NCBI GenBank assembly: GCA_049969715.1
Contig: JBMFOH010000008.1
Location: forward strand, 54,056-74,723
Direction: 5' to 3'
Source of the DNA: JBMFOH01 sp049969715 [NCBI: bacterium]
GTDB lineage: Bacteria > DUMJ01
DNA length: 20,668 nt
In this document: piece by piece, positions 1 to 19,902 of the stretch
How positions within the stretch are numbered: the first letter of the stretch is position 1
Layout of the letters: every line of letters starts with the position of its first letter
The notes under the pieces: model-generated
What the model was told of the DNA's origin: nothing
Database searches by the model: none
The model's input: only the letters and a program-made list of their open reading frames with translations
Program-made: the position numbers and the translations under genes

Positions 1-564
1 GGAGGAAGTAGTCTTAATTGGCTTAAAGATATATTTTCAATTGAGTCCTTTAACGATATGATGGAAGAGGGTAAAAAAAGTAAAGATAAGTTTAATAAGC
101 TATTCTTTTTTCCTCATCTTGCTGGTGCTACATCACCTTACTGGAAGGAAGAACTACCTGGGACGTTTTATGGAATTACTCTTTCAACTACTAAATCTGA
201 TATCATCTGGTCAGTAATTGAGGGATTAGCTTTTCAGGTAAAGAAAAATATAGAGGTGATAGAGGAATTATCTGGGGAGGTAGAAGATTTAGTCCTATTT
301 GGTGGAGGTGCGAAGGGGAAACTTATAAGAGAAATCTTTGTTAACGTGCTAGCAAAACCTTTATTTGTGTTTCCCTATCCTGATATGCCTCTTATAGGGG
401 TTTCTTTATTAGCAGGAATAGTTACGGGGATATTTAGAGACTATAAGGAAATTATTCCTTTAATAAGAAAGAAAGCATCTCTTATAGAACCTGAAATTAG
501 GAAGATAGAGATCTACGGTGAACTCTATATGGAATATCTAGAGATCCAAAGCAAACTTTTATAG
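1..564 (+). CDS. FGGY-family carbohydrate kinase, C-terminal part (5' end outside window)
   Basis: The frame is open from base 1, so this is the 3' end of a gene that starts upstream; the ATG at 58 is internal. The 187 visible residues are the FGGY C-terminal domain (actin-like ATPase fold). They begin with a GGSSLNWLKD segment, followed by PHLAGATSPYWKEELPGTFYG and the ATP-site motif LFGGGAKGKLIREIFVNVL, then a helix-rich tail. The family phosphorylates sugars or polyols such as xylulose, gluconate, glycerol, ribulose or fuculose. The visible part resembles xylulokinase-like members, but substrate specificity lies mainly in the missing N-terminal half, so I give no symbol. It ends 11 bases before a creatininase-family gene on the same strand, so the two are probably co-transcribed. 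The family call is secure; the substrate is unknown. Confidence 0.9.
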   Translation, partial: GGSSLNWLKDIFSIESFNDMMEEGKKSKDKFNKLFFFPHLAGATSPYWKEELPGTFYGITLSTTKSDIIWSVIEGLAFQVKKNIEVIEELSGEVEDLVLFGGGAKGKLIREIFVNVLAKPLFVFPYPDMPLIGVSLLAGIVTGIFRDYKEIIPLIRKKASLIEPEIRKIEIYGELYMEYLEIQSKLL

Positions 565-575
565 GAGGAGGAACT

Positions 576-1361
576 ATGTCCATATATTTTGCCGAGAAAA
601 GTTGGATTGAGTTGCAAAAGGCTATAGAAGATAATACTTTAGTTTTAATTCCTGTTGGTACTATTGAAGAACATGGGAAACATCTTCCTGTTAATACGGA
701 TTGTATAATAGCAGAGGAAGTGACTAAGAGAGTAGCAGAAGTAATAAGGAATGAAATTCCTATTCTTGTTATGCCTACAGTATGGACGGGATATTCAGAA
801 AAGAAGATGATGAAATGGCCAGGAACATGTAGGATTTCTATAGATACCTTTATGAACTTGTGTTTTGACCTTTGTGGTTCACTTATTGAGATGGGTTTCA
901 GAAAAATTGTAATCATAAATGGACATGGGCACAATGCAGAAGCCCTAAGAGTAGTAGCAAGGAAGATTGCTGACTCATATGATGTATTTATTGCTATAAC
1001 CGATGTAGGTGTTATGGCTTCAGAAGTTGTTCCAAAAGTAAGGAAATCTATTCAGGGGGGGTCTATTCATGGCGGAGAATACGAAACTAGCCTTATGCTC
1101 TATCTAAAACCGGAATTAGTTCATATGGAACTAGCTACTAATGAAGACATTATGAGATATCACTCTAAATTTTATCCAGGAGATAACTTCGTAGGAGGTA
1201 TGAAAGTCTTCTGGTCTACATGGGGAATTCAGGAAAGTAAGACAGGTATTTATGGGGATCCAACTGTTGCTTCGAAAGAGACAGGAGAAGAGATTATGAA
1301 AAATATTATAAAAAATTATGTGGGATTTCTAAAAGAATTCTATAATCATACGGGTAGCTAG
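576..1361 (+). CDS. Creatininase-family metal-dependent amidohydrolase
   Basis: This 261-residue protein has full length for the family. The N-terminal metal motif GTIEEHGKHLPVNTD supplies E31, H33 and D42 at the spacing of the known ligands. NGHGHN (residues 115-120, usually NGHGGN) and the GGEYETS segment with E168 provide the other conserved active-site positions. The family hydrolyses cyclic or linear amides: creatininase, the FAPy deformylase ArfB and the mycofactocin peptidase MftE all belong to it. Nothing here indicates creatinine, riboflavin or mycofactocin metabolism, so the substrate is unknown. The start is well supported by AGGAGGAGGA just upstream of ATG 576. It follows a sugar kinase by 11 bases, which suggests a role in a carbohydrate or amino-sugar pathway. 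Its TAG stop shares the CTAG at 1358-1361 with the stop of the convergent transporter gene. Confidence 0.88.
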   Translation: MSIYFAEKSWIELQKAIEDNTLVLIPVGTIEEHGKHLPVNTDCIIAEEVTKRVAEVIRNEIPILVMPTVWTGYSEKKMMKWPGTCRISIDTFMNLCFDLCGSLIEMGFRKIVIINGHGHNAEALRVVARKIADSYDVFIAITDVGVMASEVVPKVRKSIQGGSIHGGEYETSLMLYLKPELVHMELATNEDIMRYHSKFYPGDNFVGGMKVFWSTWGIQESKTGIYGDPTVASKETGEEIMKNIIKNYVGFLKEFYNHTGS

Positions 1362-9151: not shown

Positions 9152-9721
9152 TCACTCTTTACTCATCTCTTCTTCTATTATCTCACATATACTATGGATT
9201 ATCACCTCATGTATCTCTTGGACCCTTGGGGTTTTAGATAGGGGAACTATTATAGGAATATCTACAAGCTTGCCAAGTTTTCCTCCATCATTCCCAAGAA
9301 GTCCAATCGTCTTAATAGAAAGTTTTTTTGCTACTTCAACCGCTTCTATAAGATTTTTGGCATTTCCACTAGTAGAGATTGCTATAAATACATCACCTTT
9401 TATTCCTATGGCTTCTACCTGCCTAGAGAATATCTTTTCAAAGGAATAATCGTTGCCTATAGCGGTGAGGATCGACGTATTAGTAGAGAGAGCTATCGCA
9501 GGTAGAGCTCTTCTCTCCTTTAGAAATCTTCCAACCAGCTCTCCTGTAAGGTGTTGAGCATCACTGGCTGAACCTCCATTTCCAGCTACTAATACCTTGT
9601 TACCAGTCTTTAAAGAACTTACTATAACCTCTATAGCGTTCTCTATATCCCTATTTAATCTCTCATCTAAGAGTACATCCCTAGCATCTATAGCTTCTTT
9701 GAATATCTCCTTTAATTTCAT
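9152..9721 (-). CDS. gmhA: SIS-domain sugar-phosphate isomerase, GmhA-like
   Basis: This 189-residue protein closely matches sedoheptulose-7-phosphate isomerase. It has VLVAGNGGSASDAQHLTGEL (43-62), TAIGNDYSFE (86-95), the phosphate-binding loop ISTSGNAKN (115-123) and VQEIHEVIIH (167-176). H57, E61, Q168 and H176 occur at the spacing of the E. coli GmhA zinc and active-site ligands, so catalysis looks intact. The classical product is D-glycero-D-manno-heptose 7-phosphate for LPS or S-layer glycans. No other heptose genes are visible here, and the start codon abuts the stop of the alpha-mannosidase (TAA then ATG). It may therefore have been recruited to isomerise a sugar phosphate made from mannoside breakdown. 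AGAGGTG at the end of the mannosidase gene serves as its ribosome binding site. The fold is secure; the role is uncertain. Confidence 0.85.
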   Translation of the reverse strand: MKLKEIFKEAIDARDVLLDERLNRDIENAIEVIVSSLKTGNKVLVAGNGGSASDAQHLTGELVGRFLKERRALPAIALSTNTSILTAIGNDYSFEKIFSRQVEAIGIKGDVFIAISTSGNAKNLIEAVEVAKKLSIKTIGLLGNDGGKLGKLVDIPIIVPLSKTPRVQEIHEVIIHSICEIIEEEMSKE

Positions 9722-12127
9722 TTACTCTTTCACCTCTTCTAATAGATTTACCTCCTTAATTGGTAAGGAGCTGTTTTTTGGAATGAGAAAGGTCTTTATC
9801 TCATAGGGGGAAAAGGATACCTTCCAATTCCTATTAAATAATATAAAACTTGCCTGTGTAGAGTTTCCTCTAGTCTCATATGCCCTAACTATAATGTCTT
9901 CGCTATCTTCTGCCTCCTTTATAGTGCTGACTATAATGTTCTCTTTATCTACCTCTATGAATTTCTTTTCTGACGGTAGTGTACCTTTGTGGTTATATTC
10001 CACAAACGCTGTGGGTGGATTATTTAAATATTCTGCTAAGGCTATTATATCACTCTCTCTCCAATCCCCTTTATGTGGTAGAAGTATGTATGTGAATCCT
10101 TGCTCTCCCTGATCTATATATCTATAATCTTCATTGGGGTCTAGTTCTCTTGGTATGTGGTGGGCATATACAGGACTTCTCAATACAGTAAGGGAGAGGA
10201 CATTATCTTCTACATCATAACTGTACTTGGCGTTATTAATAAGACTTAGACCGTAATTATCATCACCTACATCTATCCATTCTCCTCCTGGTTCCTCTTC
10301 TCCATTACAGGGTCTAGTGATAAAGCCATATGGAATCTGATAAGTAGCAGTTGGATTATTTATATTAACTGGAAACTTTAGCTTTAACATCTTAAGATGT
10401 TCATGCCAATCTACTTTTACTCGAACCTCAATAAATTTTAAATCTCTGTAGATGATGAAATCTTGAGTTAGGGTAGAATTATTGAACTTACTTTTTACTC
10501 TCAAGACCCCTCTTACAGGTCCTTTCTCTAAAACTTTTATTTCTGCCTCTGTGAACTTATCTATTTCATTCTTAAATCTAAATACATTGTGACTCCAGGT
10601 ATCGCTTGGGTCATCTATAACTGTAGGAACAGCTGAATCCTTTGTGAAAACCTCCTTCTTATTCTCCTTATCGTAGAGCCTCTTTATATATCCTGTTTCT
10701 CTATCTATCTCTAAATATAGCCAGTCGTTCTCTAGAGTATTTTCTCCTACAGTTAGAGAGTGAGAAAAGTTTATATTATATTTTTCTGGCACTGCCCTGT
10801 AGACTTTGTATCCATACGGAGGAAGCTTGGCAATGAATATAGCATTAATCCTTCCGCCAGTTGTTGTGGCAGATGGCTTGGAGCATTGGGTAGCTATCGG
10901 AGTATTATCTTCTAAGATGCTTAAGTTTTCTTCTCTCCAAGGGATTTCAATCTCTACAGGAACTTTTCTCTCAAATGATGTTGTATTAAATATCACTATT
11001 GGTTCTCCTTTCCCTTGGGTGTCAATGTCGCTGGCTATCAGTTGGGTACTATACACTATTATCTTATTTACAGTGTCTTCTATAGCTCCATGCATAGCCT
11101 TTATCTCCTCGTATGCTTCAGGTATACTTGTTCCTGCTAATATATCGTGGAATTGGGTAAAGAGTAGATTTTGCCAGCTTGATGTGAATTCTTCTTTAGG
11201 ATATGGGGTATTTTCTATATAGTTAGCTAAAGTTGCAATCTTCTCTCCATCTAATAAGAGGTGCTCTAGTTTTCTGTTACTCTTTTTTATCCAAGATAAT
11301 ACTGAATAACAGCCACTTGCATGGTGCTGCAAATCATCTTTGACTACAGGAAGGTCTATGTTTTTGTTAGATATCTCTTCGAAGAATTTATTAGGTGAAC
11401 TAAAGATAAGCATTGGTATATCTTCTCTTGTATTTAGCTCTTTTATGTTTTCTATATTCTCTTTCGTTGGCCCTCCTCCGTGGTCTCCTATACCATAGAA
11501 GCACATAAGAGAATTAATTGTTTCATTGAGCTTTTCTGCTACTCTCCTTACTTGGGTTTCTACCTCTTTACCCCAAGTGGCATAAGAGAATGGAATCCTA
11601 TAGGTAAGTACCTTAGAGCCATCTGGACTTTCCCAATAAAATATATCTCCTGGTAACTCCTTTTCGTGAGGTCCTGGTCGCATAAATACATAGTAATCTA
11701 TTCCCATCTTCTTTAAAACTTGAGGAATCATCCAGTTATGACCAAAAGAATCAGGGTTATAACCAACCTTTGCCTTTACACCAAACTTTTCTAAAAAATA
11801 TTTCTGCCCATAAAGTCCTTGTCTTACTAGGGCTTCTCCTCCGGGAATATTACAGTCAGGCTCTATCCACCATCCACCTACAATGCACCAACGTCCCTCT
11901 TTTACTTTTTCCTTGATTTTTTCAAATAATTCTGGATCAGTTTCTTCTATCCATTGATAAAGACAGGCGCTAGATGCAGTAAAGACAAATTCGGGATACT
12001 CTTCTATCCTATCAATAGCAGACTTAAATGTTGCTCTTGTAGTTTCTAATCCTTCTTTCCATGTCCATAACCACACAGGATCAATATGTGCATTACCAAT
12101 CATATGAAGCTTATAAGACTTCTTCAT
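9722..12127 (-). CDS. GH38 alpha-mannosidase
   Basis: This 801-residue cytoplasmic enzyme has no signal peptide. It begins with the GH38 signature GNAHIDPVWLWTWKEG, where H14 and D16 bind zinc. D126 in VGYNPDSFGHN (121-131) is the expected nucleophile. YYVFMRPGPHEK and the QHHASGCYSVLSWIKKSNR segment near residue 265 (third zinc-ligand region and start of the helical bundle) follow, and then the beta-sandwich C-terminal half. The family is a retaining exo-alpha-mannosidase that releases mannose from alpha-mannosides, including those of N-glycan type. Its start overlaps the ROK gene stop in ATGA. With the beta-mannosidase upstream it could dismantle a branched mannoside inside the cell, so short oligosaccharides must be imported. 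No transporter is visible in this cluster. Confidence 0.94.
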   Translation of the reverse strand: MKKSYKLHMIGNAHIDPVWLWTWKEGLETTRATFKSAIDRIEEYPEFVFTASSACLYQWIEETDPELFEKIKEKVKEGRWCIVGGWWIEPDCNIPGGEALVRQGLYGQKYFLEKFGVKAKVGYNPDSFGHNWMIPQVLKKMGIDYYVFMRPGPHEKELPGDIFYWESPDGSKVLTYRIPFSYATWGKEVETQVRRVAEKLNETINSLMCFYGIGDHGGGPTKENIENIKELNTREDIPMLIFSSPNKFFEEISNKNIDLPVVKDDLQHHASGCYSVLSWIKKSNRKLEHLLLDGEKIATLANYIENTPYPKEEFTSSWQNLLFTQFHDILAGTSIPEAYEEIKAMHGAIEDTVNKIIVYSTQLIASDIDTQGKGEPIVIFNTTSFERKVPVEIEIPWREENLSILEDNTPIATQCSKPSATTTGGRINAIFIAKLPPYGYKVYRAVPEKYNINFSHSLTVGENTLENDWLYLEIDRETGYIKRLYDKENKKEVFTKDSAVPTVIDDPSDTWSHNVFRFKNEIDKFTEAEIKVLEKGPVRGVLRVKSKFNNSTLTQDFIIYRDLKFIEVRVKVDWHEHLKMLKLKFPVNINNPTATYQIPYGFITRPCNGEEEPGGEWIDVGDDNYGLSLINNAKYSYDVEDNVLSLTVLRSPVYAHHIPRELDPNEDYRYIDQGEQGFTYILLPHKGDWRESDIIALAEYLNNPPTAFVEYNHKGTLPSEKKFIEVDKENIIVSTIKEAEDSEDIIVRAYETRGNSTQASFILFNRNWKVSFSPYEIKTFLIPKNSSLPIKEVNLLEEVKE

Positions 12128-13350
12128 TGTGCATTTGCCTCCTTCTTTATTATCTTGTATGGGTCCTTATAGAACTCCCAAAGGGCAATTGTAGCTGCTC
12201 CTATAATACCTGTATTCTGCCCTATACTTGAAGTCAATATTTTTGTTTGCTGAGAAGCTATAGAAAAACTTCTCTCTCTTACTATCTTCTCTACCCTAGG
12301 GATAATAAGGTCCGATCCATTTATAAGTGCCTCTCTACCTAATACGATAGCTGCAGGGCTGAAGATGTTTATTGCATTTACCACCCCTACCCCAAGCCAG
12401 AAGCAATACTCATTAAGAATCTCTACCGCCCTGATATCCCCCTCTCTTGCGGTTCTGTAAAAAAGAGACAGGGTTTCTAAGGGGTCCTCTTTTAATAAGT
12501 TAGGCAACTTCTCTTCAATTCTTCTTATAAGAGAACCTACTGATGTATAAAGTTCAAGGCACCCGTAATTTCCACAACTACATTGAGGTCCACCTACATT
12601 TACAGTAGTATGCCCTAGTTCCCCTGCCAGTTCTCCAGCACCTCTATATATTTCTCCATTGATAATTATCCCTGCTCCAACCCCTGTACCTACAGCGAGA
12701 TAGACGAAGTTATCTATATCTCTGCAACATCCAAACCATTTCTCTCCTAAGGCACAGGCTTTGGCATCATTCTCTATAAAGGTAGGAATCTTAAATTCTT
12801 CTTCTATAATATCCTTTAATGGGATGTCCTTCCACCCTATAAAATTTGGAGGAGAGATGATAATCCCTTTACTTGAACTTAAAGGTCCTGGTGAACCTAT
12901 CCCTATGGCAATAATCTTTTCTTTTATTTGAGGATCAATCTCTTCTAAGAGGGAATATATGGTGTCTTTCAGAGTATTTAAAGTTATAGGAAAATGTTGA
13001 GTTAAATCAGAAATTACTCTCTTTGTAATCAGTAAATTCCCAACAAGGTCCACTATACCACAGGATATAGATGTTCTTGCTAAGTCTATCCCTAAAACAT
13101 AGTAGGCTCCGCTATTTATACTGAGTAATGTTCTACTCCGTCCTATCTCTCCTTTTACATTCCCTACCTCTTTGACAAGTCCTCTTTTTATAAATTCATC
13201 TACTAGATTAGTGATAGTAGTAGGGGTTAGAGATGTAAGCTCAGTTAATTCTATCCGAGAAATAGGGCTATATGCTCGTATAGTCTGTAAGACCAAACTT
13301 CTATTAAATTCCCTTACATAGGGAAGATTTCTGCCACGTTTTTTCCTCAC
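12124..13350 (-). CDS. ROK-family transcriptional regulator (NagC/XylR type)
   Basis: An N-terminal winged helix-turn-helix (SRIELTELTSLTPTTITNLV) is fused to a ROK sugar-kinase-like domain. The latter has a GIDLARTSISCGIVDL phosphate loop, the catalytic-type ENDAK, VGTGVGAG, and the zinc motif GGPQCSCGNYGCLE with a preceding GH. The kinase residues look intact, so it may bind or phosphorylate the inducing sugar. The start is uncertain. The longest frame begins at GTG 13392 with AAGGA directly abutting it, which is not usable spacing, and it would overlap the hidden beta-mannosidase C-terminus by 40 bases. AGAGGTG fits an ATA at 13356 (8-base spacer, ATAA overlap with that hidden stop) better than GTG 13350 (14-base spacer). 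I list 13350 as the nearest conventional codon. It is the likely regulator of the cluster. Confidence 0.88.
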   Translation of the reverse strand: MRKKRGRNLPYVREFNRSLVLQTIRAYSPISRIELTELTSLTPTTITNLVDEFIKRGLVKEVGNVKGEIGRSRTLLSINSGAYYVLGIDLARTSISCGIVDLVGNLLITKRVISDLTQHFPITLNTLKDTIYSLLEEIDPQIKEKIIAIGIGSPGPLSSSKGIIISPPNFIGWKDIPLKDIIEEEFKIPTFIENDAKACALGEKWFGCCRDIDNFVYLAVGTGVGAGIIINGEIYRGAGELAGELGHTTVNVGGPQCSCGNYGCLELYTSVGSLIRRIEEKLPNLLKEDPLETLSLFYRTAREGDIRAVEILNEYCFWLGVGVVNAINIFSPAAIVLGREALINGSDLIIPRVEKIVRERSFSIASQQTKILTSSIGQNTGIIGAATIALWEFYKDPYKIIKKEANAQ

Positions 13351-13352
13351 TT

Positions 13353-13634
13353 TTATATTGAATTCACCTCTTTTACTATCGTCTTCAGCCACTCCTTATA
13401 TTTTACTAGATTAAATGGTGGATTTCCTAGTAGATAATGATTAAAAAACTTCTTGCCATCTACCTCCCACTCTATAATAAATAGTTTCTGTTCTCCTCTA
13501 CTTACCCTAATTTTATCTAAGACCTTTTTGCTAAAAGGAGAAACTGAAAATTCTCTAGAGCTAGATTCTTCTTTAGTATCAGCATCATATACTCTGTAGG
13601 TTCCTTTCTTTTCTGTAGGAGTATCATTTACTCC
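13353..13634 (-). pseudogene. C-terminal 93 codons of the beta-mannosidase, displaced to the +1 frame
   Basis: This stretch would be blank if only complete frames were read. After the GGG at 13635-13633 (minus strand), the +1 frame reads on for 93 sense codons to a TAA at 13355-13353. It begins GVNDTPTEKKGTYRVYDADT and later contains KKFFNHYLLGNPPFNLVKY, the kind of beta-sandwich C-terminus expected after the WYVKIV stretch of GH2 beta-mannosidases. Codon use matches the neighbours. Removing one G from the GGG run joins it to the upstream frame as one 756-residue protein. It contains the ribosome binding site for the ROK gene at its end. Either the gene is truly frameshifted or the assembly has a one-base indel. 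Confidence 0.85.
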
Positions 13635-15624
13635 CTACTATCTTCACGTACCATGCCTCTGGTTCTGTTATCATTATGCAGAATGGTTCCTGGACTCTCT
13701 TTATATAATAATAGGCAAGTTTCTTACTAAAATAGTAATCTACTATAGCATCAGAAATTTGAGGCCAGCAATCTATCACGTTCCACCATATGATCCCCCA
13801 GATATTATCTGAGAGTCTTGCCCTTTCTATAAAAAACTTTTTCGCCTCAGCCTGAGTGATTTGACTTGCCAAGATAAAATCTTCTATTCTTTCTGGAATA
13901 ATTCCAAATAATTCTTTTATCTGGTTAGCCATAAGTTCATTCCTATTATAGCCTCTTTTCCTTGTCTTCCAATGTTCTACAGAATGAGCCCTCCAATAAT
14001 CATTATCCCATGGCCACAGATACTCCTTGGGGATAAACTTCTTCAGGCTTTCTAGATTTGGACATCCATGATAACCTATCTCGCTTATAAAAGATGCCTT
14101 ATTCTCTGTATAGAATCTACTCTTATAGTAGTCTCTTGGTCCCCAGAGATGTTGTTCAGGTGGAGAAAGCTTCCCTTTTGATTTTACAACTTTATCAGAA
14201 AGATAAGGGGAAGAAGGTAGATATGGTCTATAAGGGTCTAGTTGTTTACATACTGATGGTAGGACCTTCCTAGTAAGGATATTATCTGATGGGAGGAGAT
14301 TCTCTAGATTATATGCATAGTCACATTCATTATCTCCTGCCCATAATATTAAGCTCGGATGGTTCCTCAATCTCTTTATGACCTTTTTAGCTTCCTCCTC
14401 TATCTCTTTTTGAAAATCTTTATCTTGAGGATATCTTGCACAGGCAAGAGCAAAGTCTTGCCAGACCGTTATCCCATGTGTATCACAGAAGTCAAAGAAT
14501 TCGCTAGATTCGTAGACTCCTCCACCCCAACATCTAATAATATTGCAACCTAGGTCATCAAATAATTCAAGAACAGGTATTGTTCGTTCTTTATCCCTTG
14601 AGTGTAACGCATCTAATGGCACCCAATTAGAACCTCTTAATCTTACCGGAATGCCATTTATTATAAATCTAAAGATACCATCCTCTTCAGCGGTTTCTGT
14701 TCTTTCTAAGTGAACGGTTCTTATACCGATTTTATCTCTCTTTTCATCTAGGACCTCTTTATTATAGATGAGCTCACATTTTACATCATAGAGATTTGGG
14801 TCACCATATCCTTTAGGCCACCAGAGTAGGGGACTATCTAATTTTATTGAAAGATGACCAGTGATAAATTCTACAGGAAACTCAAAGACCTGCTTATTAT
14901 CATTCTTGTCAGTGAAGGTAAATCTTAAGAGGAATTCTTCAAAGTATTTAAGATTGGTCCTAAATTTAAAAAAGACATCTAGGTATGCAAGATTATCTTC
15001 TATCTTAGAGGTAGCATAATAGAGTTCTTCTATCTCTGTGTCTTTAATCTCGCTTAATTCTACGTCCTTCCATATTCCAGATGAGACTATCCTAGGTGCT
15101 ATATCCCACCCAAAGGAGTGTTGAGCCTTTCTAAGCCACAGGGCTTCATCTCTTCCTTCCCAAGAGATATTAATAGCCTCATAATTTTTCTCTTTTGCCC
15201 AAAGTATAGGAGAATCTATCTTTACTACAAGAGTATTATTCTCTTTTAGAAGCTCTGTTACATCAAAAGAATGCTCGACAAACATATTATTCGTTTCGCC
15301 GAGGAACTTACCATTAAGCCAGATAGTACTAATAGTATCTATGCCGTAGAAGACGAGCTTGAACTTCTTACAAAGAAGCTCTTTTGGAATAGTAAACTCC
15401 TTTTCATACCACCACTGGTAAAATTCAAACTTTCTTAGGGCTAGATAGTTCCTTCCAAAGAATGGGTCCTCTATAAGCCCTGCCTTTAATAGGTCAAGAT
15501 AGACATCACCTGGAACAGTAGCGGAAATACACTGAAACTTCTCCTTAGCCTCATCTATACTCTTTGCCTCCCCTTGCGGTCCAAAATAAAGAGTCCAAGT
15601 GCCTCTTAAACTTAATTTTGGCAT
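13624..15624 (-). CDS. GH2 beta-mannosidase, truncated by an apparent 1-base frameshift
   Basis: This 666-residue intact frame is a GH2 beta-mannosidase: jelly-roll sugar-binding domain (about 1-190), immunoglobulin-like domain (about 195-305) and a TIM barrel. The catalytic acid/base is E433 in LWAGDNECDY and the nucleophile is E515 in FISEIGYHG. Further markers are RGSNWVPLD, IIRCWGGGVYES and IIWWNVIDCWPQISDAIVDY. The enzyme removes terminal beta-mannose from manno-oligosaccharides or the Man-beta-GlcNAc core. It ends early at TGA 13626, and the missing C-terminal domain follows in the next frame. The barrel is complete, so activity may persist, but loss of the C-terminal sandwich could destabilise it. 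AGGAGG lies 9 bases before ATG 15624 and overlaps the stop of the UroD-like gene 13 bases upstream. No signal peptide is present. Confidence 0.93.
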   Translation of the reverse strand: MPKLSLRGTWTLYFGPQGEAKSIDEAKEKFQCISATVPGDVYLDLLKAGLIEDPFFGRNYLALRKFEFYQWWYEKEFTIPKELLCKKFKLVFYGIDTISTIWLNGKFLGETNNMFVEHSFDVTELLKENNTLVVKIDSPILWAKEKNYEAINISWEGRDEALWLRKAQHSFGWDIAPRIVSSGIWKDVELSEIKDTEIEELYYATSKIEDNLAYLDVFFKFRTNLKYFEEFLLRFTFTDKNDNKQVFEFPVEFITGHLSIKLDSPLLWWPKGYGDPNLYDVKCELIYNKEVLDEKRDKIGIRTVHLERTETAEEDGIFRFIINGIPVRLRGSNWVPLDALHSRDKERTIPVLELFDDLGCNIIRCWGGGVYESSEFFDFCDTHGITVWQDFALACARYPQDKDFQKEIEEEAKKVIKRLRNHPSLILWAGDNECDYAYNLENLLPSDNILTRKVLPSVCKQLDPYRPYLPSSPYLSDKVVKSKGKLSPPEQHLWGPRDYYKSRFYTENKASFISEIGYHGCPNLESLKKFIPKEYLWPWDNDYWRAHSVEHWKTRKRGYNRNELMANQIKELFGIIPERIEDFILASQITQAEAKKFFIERARLSDNIWGIIWWNVIDCWPQISDAIVDYYFSKKLAYYYIKRVQEPFCIMITEPEAWYVKIVGSK

Positions 15625-15637
15625 AGAAATTCGCCTC

Positions 15638-16660
15638 CTAAAATATTTCTTCTAAGGGTTTATTCCACTCTTCAAATACAGCTTCGATGTTTTCTTTTGG
15701 ATCCTTTACACCCCATTCACACTGGGCTATCACTCCACCTCTACCTGTGTCGAGAGCCTTTCTTATCCTTCTTACTGCTGATCTTACCTCTTCTACTGTT
15801 CCAAAGGGAAGTATATATTGTCTGTCTATCTCTCCCCAAAAGGTAATCTTACCTTTATATTTTCTACCTAATTCTTCTATGTTCATACAGAATAGTTGAG
15901 AATTTATAGCATCTATTCCAATCTCTATAAGGTCAGGGTATATTGCCTCTATGTGCCCATCTGAATGGAAGAATATAAACTTGTTATGGGAGTGCAATAT
16001 GTCACAGTAATCTTTATACAGAGGCTTAAAGAATTCTCTCCAAAGTTTAGGGGAGATAAGAAGTGAGTTTTGAGCACCCCAGTCGTCCATAAATGAAACT
16101 CCATCTACATCTGTTTTTGCCCACATCTCTATCTCTTTAATAAAAAATTCATGTAGCATATCCCTTAATATAAATACTTCTTTTACACTATAGGCAAGGT
16201 CTAAAAAGAGATTTTCACTACCTCTTAGGAACTGCATCCTTTCAAAAGGACGTGTTTCTGTTCCTACCTTAACAAATTTATCTGTTTCCGCGCAACTCTT
16301 ATTTACTTCAGAAAGGTCCGCCTCTTCTAATAATTCCCATGGTAACTTGTAACTTTTTAATGAGGACCAATCCGCTAAAGGCGGATCTTTCACTTCACCT
16401 ACAACTCCTGGTTCTGCAACCTTCCATACACATCCCCAAGCATCAATGTATTCTCCTACCGTATAAGGAATCCCTCTTGCTCTTCTACTAACTCCATATC
16501 TATATCTTGGTGCTGTAAAGTCAGGTGGATATTTCTTTAAGACTTCTTCTAACTCGTTTTTCCTAAACATTTCTACCCCCGGCAGATACCACAAGTCTCT
16601 AGGAACTCTATCAGGATTTTCAAATCTTAATGTTCTTATAACTCTTTCTCTTGAAGTCAT
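15638..16660 (-). CDS. UroD-family protein (MtaA-like fold), divergent zinc site
   Basis: This member of the uroporphyrinogen decarboxylase/cobalamin-methyltransferase superfamily has 340 residues from ATG 16660. That start is chosen because GGAGG lies 6 bases upstream; a longer frame from TTG 16687 adds nine residues without a better site. It opens with the family's MTSRERVIRTLRFENPDRVP, then RPFERMQFLRGSENL and DVDGVSFMDDWGAQNSLLI. At the position of the usual HSCG zinc motif it has HSDGH (H232, D234), and C314 lies near the end in VIAQCEWG. The superfamily contains heme-pathway decarboxylases and zinc-dependent methyl transferases such as MtaA. No heme genes are nearby, so a methyl-transfer role is likelier. 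It leads the mannosidase operon. The substrate is unknown. Confidence 0.85.
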   Translation of the reverse strand: MTSRERVIRTLRFENPDRVPRDLWYLPGVEMFRKNELEEVLKKYPPDFTAPRYRYGVSRRARGIPYTVGEYIDAWGCVWKVAEPGVVGEVKDPPLADWSSLKSYKLPWELLEEADLSEVNKSCAETDKFVKVGTETRPFERMQFLRGSENLFLDLAYSVKEVFILRDMLHEFFIKEIEMWAKTDVDGVSFMDDWGAQNSLLISPKLWREFFKPLYKDYCDILHSHNKFIFFHSDGHIEAIYPDLIEIGIDAINSQLFCMNIEELGRKYKGKITFWGEIDRQYILPFGTVEEVRSAVRRIRKALDTGRGGVIAQCEWGVKDPKENIEAVFEEWNKPLEEIF

Positions 16661-17062
16661 CTTTAGCCTCCAACTATTGCGTTCCAATCTTTTATTAGGA
16701 ATTTAGCTCTCATTTTTCTAATTCCTCTATTAAAAATTTTTCCTTTTTACCTATTCTATCTCCTGGAAAGCTTTTCTTTAGAGGCAGAATAGAGCCTCCA
16801 AGGACCAGAGAAACATAAATGATACTCCTTTCTAAAATTTTTTAACTTCCTCCCTTTTGAGGGTTACTGAGCTGAGATTTCTTAAAATGTTAACTTATCT
16901 TAATCTACTCTCATATACATTACCTCTCCAATTAGGTTTAATATATTAACCCCTAAATACCTGGATTTGACTGCTATATTATTTACCTTCTCTAAAAGTC
17001 TTCTCATTTAACCTTCCTCTATTTATTTTTATATAAAAATTATATACCAAATAATTTAAACT
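16661..17062 (-). other. Long 5' leader of the mannoside operon with small ORFs
   Basis: The promoter at 17098-17070 would start transcription near 17063, leaving about 400 untranslated bases before the first UroD-like gene. The minus strand here is purine-rich, like a sense strand. It holds a 35-codon ORF (17007-16900) with a strong Shine-Dalgarno, a 12-codon ORF (16816-16778) with AAAGGAG 8 bases upstream, and a 16-codon ORF (16713-16663). The last ends 2 bases before the UroD-like ATG. Short hairpins are GAGGC-8-GCCTC (16781-16798) and CCCT-4-AGGG (16853-16864). I recognise no known riboswitch. It could be an attenuator, a set of upstream ORFs, or the remains of a decayed gene. Confidence 0.4.
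16900..17007 (-). CDS. Small ORF of 35 codons in the operon leader, hypothetical
   Basis: It begins MRRLLEKVNNIAVKSRYLG and ends at TAA 16900. GAGGAAGG lies just upstream of ATG 17007, at usable spacing, and codon use (AGA/AGG, ATA, GTA) matches the neighbours. It is the first translatable frame after the predicted start of the minus-strand transcript. I see no recognised domain, membrane helix or cysteine motif. Stops appear in all three frames shortly after it, then further open segments in other frames, which would also fit an eroded gene. The evidence is the ribosome binding site and position only. Confidence 0.3.
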   Translation of the reverse strand: MRRLLEKVNNIAVKSRYLGVNILNLIGEVMYMRVD

Positions 17063-17100
17063 TGGCAAGATTATATACCAGTATAATTTCAATGTCAAGA
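17040..17100. repeat. Imperfect tandem repeat of about 31 bp in the divergent control region
   Basis: Two adjacent copies (17040-17070 and 17071-17100) share TTATATACCA, then a TAATTT core, then a CAAGA end. A third partial copy follows as GTATATTGACA. The shared TATATAC/TATATTG element recurs at about 17041, 17072 and 17102, spaced 30-31 bp, close to three helical turns. This suggests phased protein binding sites on one face of the DNA. Confidence 0.5.
17070..17098 (-). promoter_or_regulatory. Consensus promoter for the mannoside operon
   Basis: On the minus strand a perfect TTGACA (17098-17093) and a perfect TATAAT (17075-17070) are separated by exactly 17 bp. This is a full match to the vegetative sigma-factor consensus, so it would be strong unless repressed. 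Its -35 is one arm of the inverted repeat at 17091-17113. The first coding sequence with a recognised product starts about 400 bases downstream at 16660. Confidence 0.75.
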
Positions 17101-17113
17101 GTATATTGACATT
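17091..17113. promoter_or_regulatory. Perfect 8-bp inverted repeat (operator candidate) between divergent promoters
   Basis: AATGTCAA (17091-17098) and its exact complement TTGACATT (17106-17113) flank a 7-bp spacer. Each arm contains the -35 hexamer of one of the two divergent promoters. A dimeric regulator bound here would block or control both. The ROK protein of the cluster is the obvious candidate because ROK repressors bind palindromes, but this pairing is inference. Confidence 0.65.
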
Positions 17114-17134
17114 ATAAAGTATTTGTTTTTTAAT
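17106..17134 (+). promoter_or_regulatory. Promoter for the two plus-strand UroD-family genes
   Basis: TTGACA (17106-17111, perfect) lies 17 bp before TTTAAT (17129-17134, 5 of 6). Transcription would start near 17141 and give a leader of about 30 bases before ATG 17172. The -35 is the right arm of the inverted repeat shared with the opposite promoter. Confidence 0.65.
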
Positions 17135-17171
17135 TAATAATAAAGATTTATTAACTCAGGAGGAATAAATT

Positions 17172-18176
17172 ATGACGAGTAAGGAGAGGGTTAAGAGAGC
17201 TATACACTTTCAAGGTCCAGACAGGATACCTCTAAGGTATGCCTTCGATCCAGAGAAGTCTGATATTGTAGGTGTAGGTTATAGATCAGCTAATTATTGG
17301 CAACCTAAAAAAGAAGGGGAAGACGAGTGGGGTTGTATTTGGGATAAACTAGGAGGAAGAGTAGTTTCATCCTTTGGGCAGGTAAAGGAGCATCCTATAA
17401 AAACATTAAAGGATTACAAGACTTATGAATTCCCAAACCCTTATGCCTCGGGGAGATTTGATCATATCCAAGAAGAAATAGAAAGGTATAGGGATAAATA
17501 TATTGCTGGTGGTATGGGATTCCATGACTTTAACAGATTGATGTTCCTTAGAGGTATGGAAGACCTATTTGAAGATCTGATTTTTAATAAAGACATTGTG
17601 ATCGAATTCCTTAGAAAGTTAGTAGACTGGCAGATAGAGATAATAAAGCAGTACCTAAGGTTTGATATTGATGGTATATGGTTTGGTGATGATTGGGGGA
17701 TGCAGAGAAGTTTAATGATAGCACCTTCACTCTGGAAAGAGATCTTTAAGCCTGAATATAAGAGACAGTTTGATTTTATCCATTCCTACGGTAAAGATGT
17801 AATATTCCATTCTTGTGGTTATGTGTGGGATATTATCATTGACTTTATAGAGATAGGCGTGGATGCTTTTAATTTTAATCAGCCTCTCATCTTTGGTAAA
17901 GATGAGGAATCAGGTATAGATAGACTAAGTAGGGATTTTGGAGGCAAGGCTTGCTTTATATGTCCACTAGATATGCAACGTACTCTTATACAGGGGACTT
18001 ATGAGGAGATGTTAAATGAGGCTAAACATTTAATTAATGCATTAGGCAAGTTTAATGGAGGATTTATAGCGTGTTGTGACGAAGGGATAGACCATGGTTA
18101 TATTCCCATAGAGAGGATAGAATTAATGGGAGAGATTTTTGAAAAGTTAGTAGGAGGAAGATATGTGGACGCATAG
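17172..18176 (+). CDS. UroD-family protein (MtaA-like), second copy
   Basis: This 334-residue protein starts MTSKERVKRAIHFQGPDRIP like the copy across the divergent promoter, and the two share LMFLRGMEDLF/MQFLRGSENLF and DIDGIWFGDDWGMQRSLMIA segments. It is therefore a diverged paralogue. It has the zinc-type HSCG (H213, C215) and a C-terminal pair C301/C302 in GGFIACCDEGIDHG, so a His-Cys-Cys site is possible. By family it is either a decarboxylase-fold orphan or a methyltransferase acting on a corrinoid, thiol or other acceptor. No corrinoid protein is encoded in this window. AGGAGG lies 8 bases before ATG 17172. It overlaps the next gene by 14 bases, indicating coupled translation and perhaps a shared complex or sequential steps. 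Confidence 0.87.
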   Translation: MTSKERVKRAIHFQGPDRIPLRYAFDPEKSDIVGVGYRSANYWQPKKEGEDEWGCIWDKLGGRVVSSFGQVKEHPIKTLKDYKTYEFPNPYASGRFDHIQEEIERYRDKYIAGGMGFHDFNRLMFLRGMEDLFEDLIFNKDIVIEFLRKLVDWQIEIIKQYLRFDIDGIWFGDDWGMQRSLMIAPSLWKEIFKPEYKRQFDFIHSYGKDVIFHSCGYVWDIIIDFIEIGVDAFNFNQPLIFGKDEESGIDRLSRDFGGKACFICPLDMQRTLIQGTYEEMLNEAKHLINALGKFNGGFIACCDEGIDHGYIPIERIELMGEIFEKLVGGRYVDA

Positions 18177-19251
18177 GGATAGGATATTAGCATTAGTTAA
18201 CCATGAAGAGCCTGATAGGATTGGGATAGGTTATTCAGCCGCCCCTGAGGTGCATAGGGCTCTTAAGGAGTTTCTTGGCATAAAAGATGATGAAGATTTG
18301 CTTGAATATCTTGGAGTAGACTTACGGTATGTATCCCCTAAAATCAAATATAAGGCTTTAGATATTTGTTATGCCGATCCTACAATAGAGGTTACTCCCG
18401 AAGGAATTCTCAAAGATATATGGGGTGTTGGATTTATAGAAAAGAGGACACAGATAGGAACTTATATTCAGTTGACTTATCACCCCCTTTACTCTATAAA
18501 GAGTGTCGAAGATTTAGAATCATACCCTTGGCCTCAAGCTGATATTTGGGATTACAGTGATATCCCTAATCAGATAGAAAGGTTAGAGGGTTACCCAATA
18601 TTTGCCCATAGTAGAGGATTTTTCGAGATCAGTTGGTTTATGCGAGGGATGGATAATTTTATGGTGGACCTTTCCTTAAATCCCGAATTGGCATGTATAC
18701 TTATGGGTAAAGTGAAAGATTATTTAGTAGCTAAGTTAATAAATATCCTAGAGGCTGGAAAAGGAAAGATAGACTTTGTAGAACTAAATGATGATGTGGG
18801 AGGACAGAATGGGCTATTGATAAGTCCAGATATGTGGAGAGAATATATAAAACCTCGTATGAAAGAGATGATTGATGTAGCTCACAGTTATGGAGCAAGG
18901 ATTATGTATCATTCCTGTGGCTCAGTAAGGGCAATAATACCAGACCTTATAGAAATAGGAGTAGAGATATTAAATCCTGTCCAGCCTAAGGCGGCTGGAA
19001 TGGAACCAAGAGGGTTGAAAAAAGATTTCGGAGATAAGCTCACTTTTTATGGAACAATAGATGAACAGGAGACCCTTCCTTATGGAAAACCTGAGGATGT
19101 AAAGGCTGAAGTCTTAGAACGTATTTCCTATATGGCTCCTGGTGGAGGATTTATTATTTCTCCTTGCCATTCTATCCAGCCCGATACATCAGTAGAAAAC
19201 ATTTTGACCTTATACAAGACTGCGTTAGAGTATGGAGTATATGGTAAATAA
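18163..19251 (+). CDS. UroD-family protein (MtaA-like), third copy, complete zinc motif
   Basis: This 362-residue protein has the clearest methyltransferase-like features of the three. YHSCG supplies H250 and C252, and GGGFIISPCHSIQPD supplies C335: the His-x-Cys...Cys zinc arrangement known from MtaA/MtbA-type enzymes. Other markers are MWTHRDRILALVNHEEPDRI at the start, FMRGMDNFMVDL, and FVELNDDVGGQNGLLISPDM. It is more distant from the other two copies than they are from each other. AGGAGG lies about 5 bases before ATG 18163, inside the end of the preceding gene. It is the last gene of the divergent transcript, with no clear terminator after it. A zinc-dependent methyl transfer with an unknown donor is my best guess. 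Confidence 0.88.
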   Translation: MWTHRDRILALVNHEEPDRIGIGYSAAPEVHRALKEFLGIKDDEDLLEYLGVDLRYVSPKIKYKALDICYADPTIEVTPEGILKDIWGVGFIEKRTQIGTYIQLTYHPLYSIKSVEDLESYPWPQADIWDYSDIPNQIERLEGYPIFAHSRGFFEISWFMRGMDNFMVDLSLNPELACILMGKVKDYLVAKLINILEAGKGKIDFVELNDDVGGQNGLLISPDMWREYIKPRMKEMIDVAHSYGARIMYHSCGSVRAIIPDLIEIGVEILNPVQPKAAGMEPRGLKKDFGDKLTFYGTIDEQETLPYGKPEDVKAEVLERISYMAPGGGFIISPCHSIQPDTSVENILTLYKTALEYGVYGK

Positions 19252-19333: not shown

Positions 19334-19666
19334 ATGATGGAGAAAGGATCAAAATTTTTAGATATAGCTACAATAAGGCAATTAATAAGAGAAGAAAAGA
19401 TTCAGTGGCCTGGACATATCCTCATAAGGATGCATCAAAGGGGGATAAAGATAAAAGATGTGGTAACTTCTATCATGAGTGGAGAGATAATAGAATATTA
19501 CGAAGAAGATTATCCATTCCCTAGTTGTCTGATATTAGGTTTTATTGAAGAGAATAAAGGTCTTCATACCGTATGTGCCCTAGGACAAGGATATGTGTGG
19601 ATGATAACAGCCTATTATCCATCTTTAGACGAATGGTGTGAAGATCTAAAAATGAGGAGGAAATAG
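19334..19666 (+). CDS. DUF4258 protein, candidate toxin of a toxin-antitoxin-like pair
   Basis: This 110-residue protein has the DUF4258 pattern. A helical start leads to GHILIRMHQRGIKIKDVVTSI and SGEIIEYYEEDYPFPSCLIL, then a beta-rich end LHTVCALGQGYVWMITAYYP. DUF4258 is structurally grouped with RelE/MqsR-like (BECR-fold) ribonucleases. The conserved H and R in the HxLIRMHQRG stretch and the late Tyr residues could form the active site, which is inference. It is followed 5 bases later by a YgiT-type zinc-finger gene, a recurring two-gene arrangement. ATG 19334 and ATG 19337 are alternative starts; neither has a good Shine-Dalgarno site, which fits the near-leaderless message. Confidence 0.78.
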   Translation: MMEKGSKFLDIATIRQLIREEKIQWPGHILIRMHQRGIKIKDVVTSIMSGEIIEYYEEDYPFPSCLILGFIEENKGLHTVCALGQGYVWMITAYYPSLDEWCEDLKMRRK

Positions 19667-19671
19667 CACCT

Positions 19672-19902
19672 ATGGAATGCATCTTTTGTAGATCTAACTT
19701 AGTACCAGGGAGGGTGAATCATATAGTAGATCTGGAAGGACATATTATTATAATTAAAGAAGTTCCAGCGAATATCTGTAAGCAATGTGGGGAGTACTTT
19801 CTAGAAAATGATATAGCCCTAAGATTAGAAAAAGTAATAGAAGAGCTAAAAAAGAATAAGGCAGAAGTCTTAATTATAAACTTCCAAGAAATAGCAGCAT
19901 AA
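19672..19902 (+). CDS. YgiT-type (MqsA N-terminal-like) zinc-finger protein, candidate antitoxin
   Basis: This 76-residue protein has C3-x2-C6 (MECIFCRSNL) and C36-x2-C39 (ANICKQCGEYF), the YgiT-type zinc finger found at the N-terminus of the MqsA antitoxin. An alpha-helical tail, RLEKVIEELKKNKAE, follows. The C-terminal Xre-type helix-turn-helix of full MqsA is absent, which is common in the short DUF4258-linked form. It would be expected to bind and neutralise the upstream protein. Autoregulation is less certain without a DNA-binding domain. GAGGAGG lies 11 bases before ATG 19672, overlapping the end of the preceding gene. Confidence 0.8.
   Translation: MECIFCRSNLVPGRVNHIVDLEGHIIIIKEVPANICKQCGEYFLENDIALRLEKVIEELKKNKAEVLIINFQEIAA

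What the first reader, a model, noticed from the sequence alone, without database searches (positions are those of the whole stretch)
9152..19251. Mannoside regulon with three UroD-family proteins: candidate pathway for modified mannosides
Alpha- and beta-mannosidase, a ROK regulator and a sugar-phosphate isomerase are co-regulated with three MtaA-like proteins, and there are no heme or corrinoid genes. A coherent hypothesis is breakdown of O-methylated or otherwise methyl-bearing mannans or N-glycan-like oligosaccharides. The UroD-like proteins would take the methyl group to an acceptor encoded elsewhere. I know of no described pathway of exactly this form.
Basis: inference. Interest (0 to 1): 0.65.

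Follow-up and report, generated by a model that had tools for sequence, protein, structure and literature searches.

The report
Glycosidase operon with three UroD-fold methyltransferases
A bacterial gene set for breaking down mannose-type sugar chains also carries three enzymes related to vitamin-B12-linked methyltransferases, and the same pairing recurs in other bacteria, which points to an undescribed way of removing methyl groups from sugars without oxygen.

Summary
9152-19251 encodes GmhA-like SIS isomerase, GH38, ROK regulator, GH2 and UroD1 on the minus strand, and UroD2-UroD3 divergently. GH2 as bait hit 2 of 398 genomes of one phylum, both with UroD genes in the locus. UroD2 as bait hit 3; in 2 of them GH38 is next to it or one gene on. 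A gut plasmid carries GH2-UroD-UroD-ROK-UroD. The window has no corrinoid gene, but relatives carry the machinery elsewhere: a small corrinoid protein in 46 of 50 UroD1 genomes, a RACE activase in 16 of 16 tested against 1 of 14 controls. One relative has 25 URO-D matches and one corrinoid gene. In two relatives the corrinoid gene sits with UroDs among sugar transport or kinase genes. UroD1 models at pLDDT 96, top match MtaA, with an invariant Asp at one MtaA cysteine position. Best reading: methyltransferases that demethylate sugars or glycosides through one shared corrinoid hub. No substrate, methyl transfer or metal was shown. Nine topical searches of an open-access library found no description.

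The parts
9152..9721 (-). GmhA-like SIS sugar-phosphate isomerase, last gene of the minus operon, abuts GH38
   Evidence: PF13580 96.8 bits; TIGR00441 211.3 vs cut-off 209.45
9722..12127 (-). GH38 alpha-mannosidase-family protein; relatives 76-77% in L001/L002, 52% in G533, 51% in G497
   Evidence: PF01074 238 bits
12124..13392 (-). ROK-family regulator, overlaps GH38 by 4 bases
   Evidence: PF00480 229 bits; MarR-type HTH 21.3 bits, below its 24.6 cut-off
13624..15624 (-). GH2 beta-mannosidase-like protein, 666 aa as read; frameshift near 13633/13634, homology continues to about 13365
   Evidence: PF22666 167 bits; best PDB 9nfe 554 bits, beta-mannosidase 5n6u 357 bits; frameshift
15638..16687 (-). 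UroD1, UroD-fold protein; probable true start at 16660
   Evidence: PF01208 55.8 bits; 79 loci with relatives at 54-88%; H241 and D243 in 81 of 81 rows; model pLDDT 96.4
16978..17098 (-). Tandem sigma-70-type promoters for the minus operon: 17098-17070 (12/12) and 17068-17039 (11/12), plus a weaker one at 17007-16978 (9/12)
   Evidence: consensus matches only
17172..18176 (+). UroD2, UroD-fold protein with H-x-C motif; orthologues near GH38 in G533 (one gene between) and G497 (adjacent)
   Evidence: PF01208 49.2 bits
18163..19251 (+). UroD3, UroD-fold protein with H-x-C motif; overlaps UroD2 by 14 bases; two clade members lie in corrinoid-gene loci of other genomes
   Evidence: PF01208 81.4 bits; MtaA 4ay7 E 4.6e-9

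Best explanation
This is a glycoside-catabolic gene set (GH38 and GH2 exo-glycosidases, ROK regulator, sugar-phosphate isomerase) with three UroD-fold proteins that act as substrate-specific methyltransferase I enzymes. Glycosidases release sugars or oligosaccharides from a mannose-type glycan. UroD1, whose predicted metal site has one carboxylate in place of a cysteine, would take the methyl group from an ether oxygen of an O-methylated sugar or glycoside. UroD2 and UroD3, with an MtaA-like His-x-Cys, would handle further positions or a second transfer. The acceptor is a corrinoid protein encoded elsewhere and shared by many UroDs of the same cell, kept active by a RACE activase; from it the methyl goes on to tetrahydrofolate or homocysteine. 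Shown here: gene content, recurrence of the neighbourhood, the fold of UroD1 as a predicted model, conserved metal-type residues, presence of the corrinoid protein and activase in relatives, and corrinoid genes lying with UroDs among sugar genes in two relatives. Inferred: methyl transfer, the O-methyl sugar substrate, sharing of the corrinoid protein, the role of each UroD, and presence of the hub in the window's own genome.
For: Neighbourhood: GH2 bait hit 2 of 398 genomes, both with UroDs in the locus; G533 reads a partial frame 65% to GH2 by BLAST (no Pfam match), UroD2 63%, UroD3 50%, GH38 52%, GH2 52%, ROK. UroD2 bait hit 3 of 398, among them both GH2 genomes (Fisher p 3.8e-5); G497 has UroD2-GH38 with ROK genes. 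Subdoligranulum plasmid: GH2 47%, three UroDs, ROK, GH78; this GH2 ranks first of 210 plasmid records, the other 19 listed rows being 33.6% or less. Corrinoid machinery: PF02607 in 47 of 50 UroD1 genomes, 46 with a match in a frame of at most 305 aa; 19 of 20 chosen loci carry an orthologue at 55-63% to the G003 protein; RACE in 16 of 16 tested. G001: 25 URO-D matches, 1 corrinoid gene, in a locus with sugar-ABC genes, LacI, FGGY kinase and two UroDs. G010: corrinoid gene in a same-strand run with GH4, GFO/IDH, GHMP kinase, FGGY kinase, AP_endonuc_2 and two UroDs, one in the UroD3 clade. In 161 genomes of the phylum of G007, all 7 with 12 or more URO-D candidates have the corrinoid family, against 39 of 154 others (p 1.1e-4; threshold chosen after seeing the table). 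Fold: MtaA Z 25.5, UROD Z 24.4, MetE-type Z 14.8. H241, D243, C323 align with MtaA H, C, C; carboxylates in place of Cys are described for O-methyltransferases of this superfamily (PMC10418091, passages seen).
Against: No corrinoid, RACE or methyl-THF gene was recognised among the window proteins scanned, and its own genome is not held. The corrinoid family also occurs in 42 of 157 genomes of the phylum of G007 without a UroD1-like match, so it is not a private partner; of the 4 UroD1-like genomes there only 2 are clear orthologues (67%, 53%), the others 38-39%. In 10 of 20 chosen corrinoid loci no UroD was recognised. In G001 the only match to the G003 pterin-binding methyltransferase is 33%, within a 571-aa protein that looks like the first two modules of MetH, so the corrinoid protein could be a methionine-synthase module; G007 has no match at E up to 1e-20. 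The third metal position is not stable: in UroD1 C323 in 73 of 78 rows and E324 in 78 of 78; several UroD3-like proteins (G249, L080, L120) lack the Cys. SBP_bac_5 enrichment beside G001 UroDs is not significant (8/81 vs 3/80, p 0.11). UroD1 mostly lies outside mannosidase loci: 7 of 79 have a GH38 relative nearby.
Confidence: 0.48

Rival explanations
1. Same enzymes, different methyl group: the UroDs demethylate the non-sugar part (methoxylated aromatic or other aglycone) of plant or microbial glycosides after the glycosidases have removed the sugars.
For: Known UroD-superfamily MT-I enzymes (OdmB, VdmB, MtvB, MtoB) demethylate methoxylated aromatics (PMC13222342, passages). UroD loci of relatives also hold rhamnosidases (GH78, GH106-like) and fucosidases, sugars common in plant glycosides.
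Against: Corrinoid plus UroD loci contain sugar kinases and isomerase-like genes (FGGY, GHMP, AP_endonuc_2), and no aromatic-degradation family is among the 25 families printed for each neighbour set (capped lists). Window UroDs match MtaA-type models; whether the NCBIfam library holds a dedicated aromatic O-demethylase model was not checked.
Confidence: 0.15
2. The UroDs are not methyltransferases: a metal-dependent TIM-barrel branch has been recruited for another step on sugars (isomerisation, epimerisation, lyase or decarboxylation).
For: UroD1 has many invariant acidic and basic residues (D56, D82, E98, R155, D201, D202, E324) and an altered metal triad; 25 URO-D matches share one corrinoid gene in G001, so most there have no corrinoid gene beside them; GFO/IDH/MocA oxidoreductases recur beside UroD1 (6 of 79 scanned neighbours).
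Against: Every UroD1 genome tested for it has a RACE activase (16 of 16) and most a small corrinoid protein (46 of 50); UroD3-clade members lie in corrinoid-gene loci; fold and aligned metal positions are those of MtaA.
Confidence: 0.25
3. The corrinoid protein and RACE in these genomes serve only a split methionine synthase; their co-occurrence with UroDs reflects anaerobic lifestyle, and the UroDs work with no corrinoid partner.
For: G001 has a MetH-like two-module 571-aa protein (module assignment recalled from its start sequence and the pterin-domain match) and one corrinoid gene in the genome; in G003 the corrinoid gene lies with RACE, a Met_synt_B12-like protein and a pterin-binding methyltransferase, with no UroD recognised.
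Against: In G001, G002, G010, G039 and G533 the corrinoid gene adjoins UroDs; 10 of 20 chosen corrinoid loci have a UroD in the stretch; the 7 UroD-rich genomes in the phylum of G007 all have it.
Confidence: 0.1
4. Chance neighbours: UroD genes are so numerous in such genomes that some fall beside glycosidases.
For: Relatives carry 22-25 URO-D matches in about 2.1 Mb.
Against: Orthologous UroD2, UroD3, GH38, GH2 and ROK recur together in other genomes, and GH2 and UroD2 hits coincide in 398 genomes (p 3.8e-5, uncorrected for relatedness).
Confidence: 0.02

Closest known systems
Corrinoid-dependent MT-I/CP/MT-II/activase systems of acetogens (OdmB, VdmB, MtvB, CdmBCA)
   Same: UroD-fold methyltransferase I; small corrinoid protein with B12-binding domains; RACE activase; pterin-binding methyltransferase or folate enzyme beside the hub in some relatives.
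   Different: In the Cdm system the UroD gene is clustered with its corrinoid protein and MT-II (PMC13222342, passages). Here the two nearest relatives have 22-25 URO-D matches but one or two corrinoid matches, and UroDs lie in glycosidase and sugar-transport loci.
MtaA/MtbA/CmuA soluble methyltransferases and MtaA-like proteins of type 1 mlp clusters
   Same: Nearest curated models and best PDB match (4ay7/4ay8); UroD3 and UroD2 keep His-x-Cys.
   Different: Scores are 14-23% of the TIGR01463 cut-off; UroD1 has His-x-Asp; sugar rather than methyl-sulfur or selenium context (mlp context from PMC10418091, passages).
Aerobic P450 demethylation of 6-O-methyl-D-galactose in porphyran degraders
   Same: Removal of an O-methyl group from a sugar within a polysaccharide-degradation pathway.
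   Different: A cytochrome P450 monooxygenase that yields formaldehyde (PMC10033563, start of abstract seen in the listing); the proposal here is anaerobic and keeps the methyl group.
HemE uroporphyrinogen decarboxylase
   Same: Fold (Z 24.4) and Pfam family.
   Different: No HemE model matched; the best URO-D matches of G001 and G002 (E 1.7e-70, 3.8e-78) are far weaker than the group of top matches in the phylum of G007 (1e-104 to 1e-138, taken as HemE).

Membership tests
URO-D superfamily (PF01208) | Score over Pfam gathering cut-off | tested here: met
   UroD1 55.8, UroD2 49.2, UroD3 81.4 bits vs 23.9
URO-D superfamily (PF01208) | UroD/MtaA TIM-barrel fold | tested here: met
   UroD1 only: model pLDDT 96.4, pTM 0.92; 4ay8 Z 25.5 over 304 residues at rmsd 3.6, UROD Z 24.4; UroD2 and UroD3 not modelled
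MtaA/CmuA methyltransferases (TIGR01463) | Score over curated cut-off 235.4 bits | tested here: not met
   45.5, 33.3 and 54.9 bits
MtaA/CmuA methyltransferases (TIGR01463) | His-Cys-Cys zinc triad | tested here: not met
   UroD1 has H241, D243 (81 of 81) and C323 (73 of 78). UroD2 and UroD3 have H-x-C; their third position is uncertain
HemE uroporphyrinogen decarboxylase | Match to a HemE equivalog model | tested here: not met
   Only MtaA, MtbA and CmuA-type models matched the three UroDs at E up to 1e-3
Corrinoid-dependent MT-I O-demethylases | Gene cluster or genome with corrinoid protein and activase | tested here: inconclusive
   Not recognised in the window; present in relatives: small corrinoid protein 46 of 50, RACE 16 of 16; own genome not held
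Corrinoid-dependent MT-I O-demethylases | Methyl transfer from an O-methyl substrate to Co(I) corrinoid protein | not testable with these tools
   Needs enzyme assay
GH38 | Pfam GH38 domains over cut-off | tested here: met
   PF01074 238 bits, PF07748 144 bits, PF09261 67 bits
GH2 beta-mannosidase | GH2 domains over cut-off | tested here: met
   PF22666 167 bits, PF00703 47.9 bits
GH2 beta-mannosidase | Beta-mannosidase specificity | not testable with these tools
   Closest solved relative is 9nfe, named only 'Glycoside hydrolase family 2'; the first sequence named beta-mannosidase is 5n6u at 357 bits
GmhA (TIGR00441) | Score over curated cut-off | tested here: met
   211.3 vs 209.45 bits, narrowly
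ROK transcriptional regulators | ROK domain plus N-terminal DNA-binding HTH | tested here: inconclusive
   PF00480 229 bits met; MarR HTH 21.3 vs 24.6 cut-off

The most novel reading that the evidence does not exclude
A widespread anaerobic system for demethylating O-methylated sugars: in bacteria of many phyla a single corrinoid protein with its activase serves as a shared methyl hub for dozens of substrate-specific UroD-fold methyltransferases lodged in glycosidase and sugar-transport loci, of which the window's mannosidase operon is one example.
Probability: 0.38. Interest if true: 0.85.

Novelty: new variant of a known kind. Interest (0 to 1): 0.63.

Why it matters
O-methylated sugars occur in plant, algal and microbial glycans (recalled); the one removal route that my searches turned up uses a P450 monooxygenase (PMC10033563, start of abstract). 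An oxygen-free route would offer a testable role for large UroD families in anaerobes whose Pfam name suggests heme synthesis, and would add a source of C1 units to polysaccharide degradation in sediments and guts. The one-hub, many-methyltransferase layout would be an unusual design for corrinoid methyl transfer.

Tried and rejected
Heme biosynthesis: rejected, no HemE model match among the scanned window proteins. Chance neighbourhood: rejected by orthologous recurrence. A riboswitch in the 484-bp intergenic region: none at gathering threshold, none up to E 1. A shared operator from the repeated TTATATACCA element: the two copies overlap the -10 regions of the tandem minus-strand promoters; the pattern with up to one mismatch occurs 8 times in the window, reached by 4 of 100 shuffles, and no like pair was seen upstream of the relatives' UroD genes that I looked at, so no operator is claimed. 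Viral contigs: 65 stretches matched the patterns, none encoded a relative. Window FGGY kinase fragment as part of a hub: only 23-27% to kinases in corrinoid loci, not pursued. Identity of PDB entry 9nfe: not found in the paper library. Enrichment of SBP_bac_5 beside G001 UroDs: not significant. UroD2/UroD3 orthologues in the nearest relatives: none in the stretches fetched from G001; best there 34% and 41%; G002 was not searched for them. Structure of UroD3: not obtained.

Literature: ten searches of an open-access library, nine on the topic and one for a PDB entry. In the listings I saw no paper describing UroD proteins with glycosidases or corrinoid-dependent sugar demethylation; the listings are capped and most subscription papers are not in that library. 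From PMC10418091 and PMC13222342 I saw passages only; from PMC10033563 the start of the abstract in a listing; other papers only as listing rows with the start of the abstract.
Full report
What is there. The window holds two divergent units. On the minus strand run UroD1, GH2, ROK, GH38 and a GmhA-like SIS isomerase; genes overlap at ROK/GH38 (4 bases), abut at GH38/GmhA, and lie 13 bases apart at UroD1/GH2. On the plus strand run UroD2 and UroD3, overlapping by 14 bases. Pfam places every gene over a cut-off of its family. The three UroDs are 28-33% identical to one another by BLAST. NCBIfam gives MtaA/CmuA models as nearest, far below cut-off, and no HemE model. Two tandem sigma-70-like promoters face the minus operon. 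GH2 as read ends early: homology to the 751- and 754-residue relatives continues for about 90 residues in the next frame from 13634.

Recurrence of the neighbourhood. The single scan of 84,980 genomes with the three UroDs as an alignment found 220 relatives, of which the best 80 were kept as 79 loci; UroD1 relatives at 54-88% identity come from at least 14 phylum-level names in the record titles. The two closest, L001 and L002, carry UroD1, GH2, ROK and GH38 in one direction, L001 with ABC-transporter genes (a SBP_bac_1 protein first) between UroD1 and GH2, and both with a further UroD-like gene after GH38 (88% identical between the two). Across the 79 loci UroD1 is not tied to mannosidases: GH38 relatives occur in 7 (L001, L002, L003, L007, L037, L056, L075); stretches differ in length, so this is a lower bound. 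In the scanned operon neighbours the most frequent families are other URO-D genes (16 of 141) and GFO/IDH/MocA oxidoreductases (6 of 79 in the first batch; not among the 25 families printed for the second).

Baits independent of UroD1 give the clearer test. Full-length GH2 of L002 matched 2 of 398 genomes of the phylum of G006 at E up to 1e-120. G533 has, in one direction, a partial frame 65% to GH2 by BLAST but without a Pfam match, then UroD2 (63%), UroD3 (50%), GH38 (52%), GH2 (52%) and ROK; G249 has UroD, three glycosidase-like genes, UroD, ROK, GH2 and a second GH2. UroD2 matched 3 of the same 398 genomes at E up to 1e-70: both GH2 genomes and G497, where UroD2 (51%) precedes GH38 (51%) with ROK genes around. 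The coincidence of GH2 and UroD2 in 398 genomes has Fisher p 3.8e-5 without correction for relatedness. In G249 the UroD2 relative lies on another contig, with no window-type glycosidase recognised around it; its neighbours were not scanned against Pfam. G533 also has a UroD1 orthologue at 81% on another contig. On a plasmid record of Subdoligranulum variabile, GH2 (47%) is followed by UroD, UroD, ROK, UroD and a GH78 rhamnosidase, with a PocR-type regulator further on. This locus was first met through UroD1; searched with GH2, it ranks first of 210 plasmid records, the other 19 listed rows being at most 33.6% identical.

A corrinoid hub elsewhere. Of 50 UroD1 genomes searched (50 of the 79 loci), 47 match PF02607; 46 have a match in an open frame of at most 305 residues, the size of a stand-alone corrinoid protein, and G004, G009, G023 and G040 do not. 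PF02607 also rings in 9 of 14 control genomes, whose frame lengths are not printed. All 16 genomes tested have a RACE activase domain, usually one; 1 of 14 control genomes has it. The corrinoid protein is one conserved family: in 20 loci that I picked from the list, identity to the G003 protein is 55-63% in 19 and 43% in one, and it is 65% and 70% in G533 and G249; the plasmid record has none. In G003 it lies with RACE, a Met_synt_B12-like protein and a pterin-binding methyltransferase; in G249 with RACE and FolD.

Link between hub and UroDs. G001 has 25 URO-D matches and one corrinoid match, G002 22 (one below the family cut-off) and two, one of these in the same frame as a UroD. In G001 the corrinoid gene adjoins two UroDs in a locus with ABC-transport genes, LacI and, on the other strand, an FGGY kinase. 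In G010 it lies in a same-strand run with GH4, GFO/IDH, GHMP kinase, UroD, AP_endonuc_2, FGGY kinase and a UroD of the UroD3 clade. In 10 of 20 chosen corrinoid loci a UroD lies in the fetched stretch, in 10 none was recognised. Among 161 genomes of the phylum of G007, UroD1-like matches at E up to 1e-60 occur in 4 (two at 67% and 53%, two at 38-39%), the corrinoid family at E up to 1e-40 in 46; all 4 are among the 46 (p 0.006), and so are all 7 genomes with 12 or more URO-D candidates in the first look (p 1.1e-4). The threshold of 12 was chosen after seeing the table, and these p values ignore phylogeny.

Sugar context of UroDs in one genome. Genes within two positions of 25 UroD-like genes recognised in the G001 stretches (nearly but not exactly the 25 matches) include SBP_bac_5 in 8 of 81, alpha-L-fucosidase in 3, GH42 in 2, GH4 in 2, GHL6 in 2, FGGY in 2 and GFO/IDH in 4. 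Of 80 control genes from other G001 contigs, SBP_bac_5 is in 3, and no glycosidase family is among the 25 printed, whose lowest count is 2. As only 25 families are printed, the glycosidase counts of the two sets cannot be compared in full; the transporter difference (p 0.11) and a GFO/IDH difference of 4 against at most 2 are not significant (one search took 1 for the control).

Structure and metal site. UroD1 is modelled with mean pLDDT 96.4 and pTM 0.92 from 53 sequences. Best matches are MtaA (Z 25.5, 304 residues, rmsd 3.6, 15% identity), then UROD (Z 24.4) and MetE-type synthases (Z 14.8). In a profile alignment the MtaA motif H-x-C and its later Cys fall on H241, D243 and C323. Across 81 UroD1 rows (window plus 80 proteins at over 50% identity) H241 and D243 never vary; C323 is Cys in 73 of 78 and the next residue E324 is Glu in 78 of 78, so the third ligand is open. 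UroD2 and UroD3 keep H-x-C. PMC10418091 states that His-Cys-Cys marks S-methyltransferases of this superfamily while carboxylate or non-coordinating substitution occurs in O-methyltransferases (passage); PMC13222342 describes UroD-fold enzymes without zinc (passages). The metal argument is thus suggestive only.

Tree. In a maximum-likelihood tree of 46 UroDs the window's three fall in one supported clade of 18 (95/94): UroD1 with UroD2 and one Subdoligranulum protein, UroD3 with the other two Subdoligranulum proteins and two corrinoid-neighbour UroDs. Long branches elsewhere in the tree make deeper joins unsure.

How it most likely works. Inferred scheme: import and exo-hydrolysis of a mannose-type glycan; methyl transfer from O-methyl positions by UroD-fold methyltransferase I enzymes to one shared corrinoid protein; reactivation by RACE; exit of the methyl to folate or homocysteine. 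The exit enzyme is the least certain step: of 10 genomes searched with the G003 methyltransferase, G007 has no match and G001 and G002 only a 33% match, in G001 within a MetH-like two-module protein. The chief rival is another sugar reaction by a repurposed UroD fold; the second is demethylation of an aglycone.

Verdict. The O-methyl-mannoside substrate remains a hypothesis.

Noticed in passing
window 19334-19902 (+): A DUF4258 protein followed by a small CxxC-type protein, arranged like a toxin-antitoxin pair directly after UroD3 (antitoxin type recalled from the sequence, not scanned).
   Followed up: no
window 13365-13634 (-): GH2 frameshift: about 90 residues homologous to the relatives continue in the next frame; damaged gene or assembly indel.
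   Followed up: partly
window 1-1361 (+): C-terminal part of an FGGY kinase followed by a creatininase-family protein; the kinase is only 23-27% identical to kinases in corrinoid loci of relatives.
   Followed up: partly
L107:16669-17817 (+) and L002:16964-18112 (+): A divergent 382-aa UroD-like protein downstream of GH38 in the two closest relatives, in the place of the window's GmhA-like gene.
   Followed up: partly
genome G179, phylum of G007: 85 URO-D candidates in the first look of one 4.2-Mb genome (12 scored), with two corrinoid-protein matches.
   Followed up: no
L181:2567-4282 (-), genome G001: 571-aa protein with a MetH-like start and a pterin-methyltransferase match, in a genome with a single corrinoid match: possible split methionine synthase (module names recalled).
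   Followed up: partly
L120 (G001:C11:102000-116000): Gene run with a ROK relative, SBP_bac_5-type protein, BNR-repeat protein and a UroD3-clade UroD, then SDR-like and GFO/IDH-like genes (recalled from their start sequences): another candidate sugar-UroD locus.
   Followed up: no
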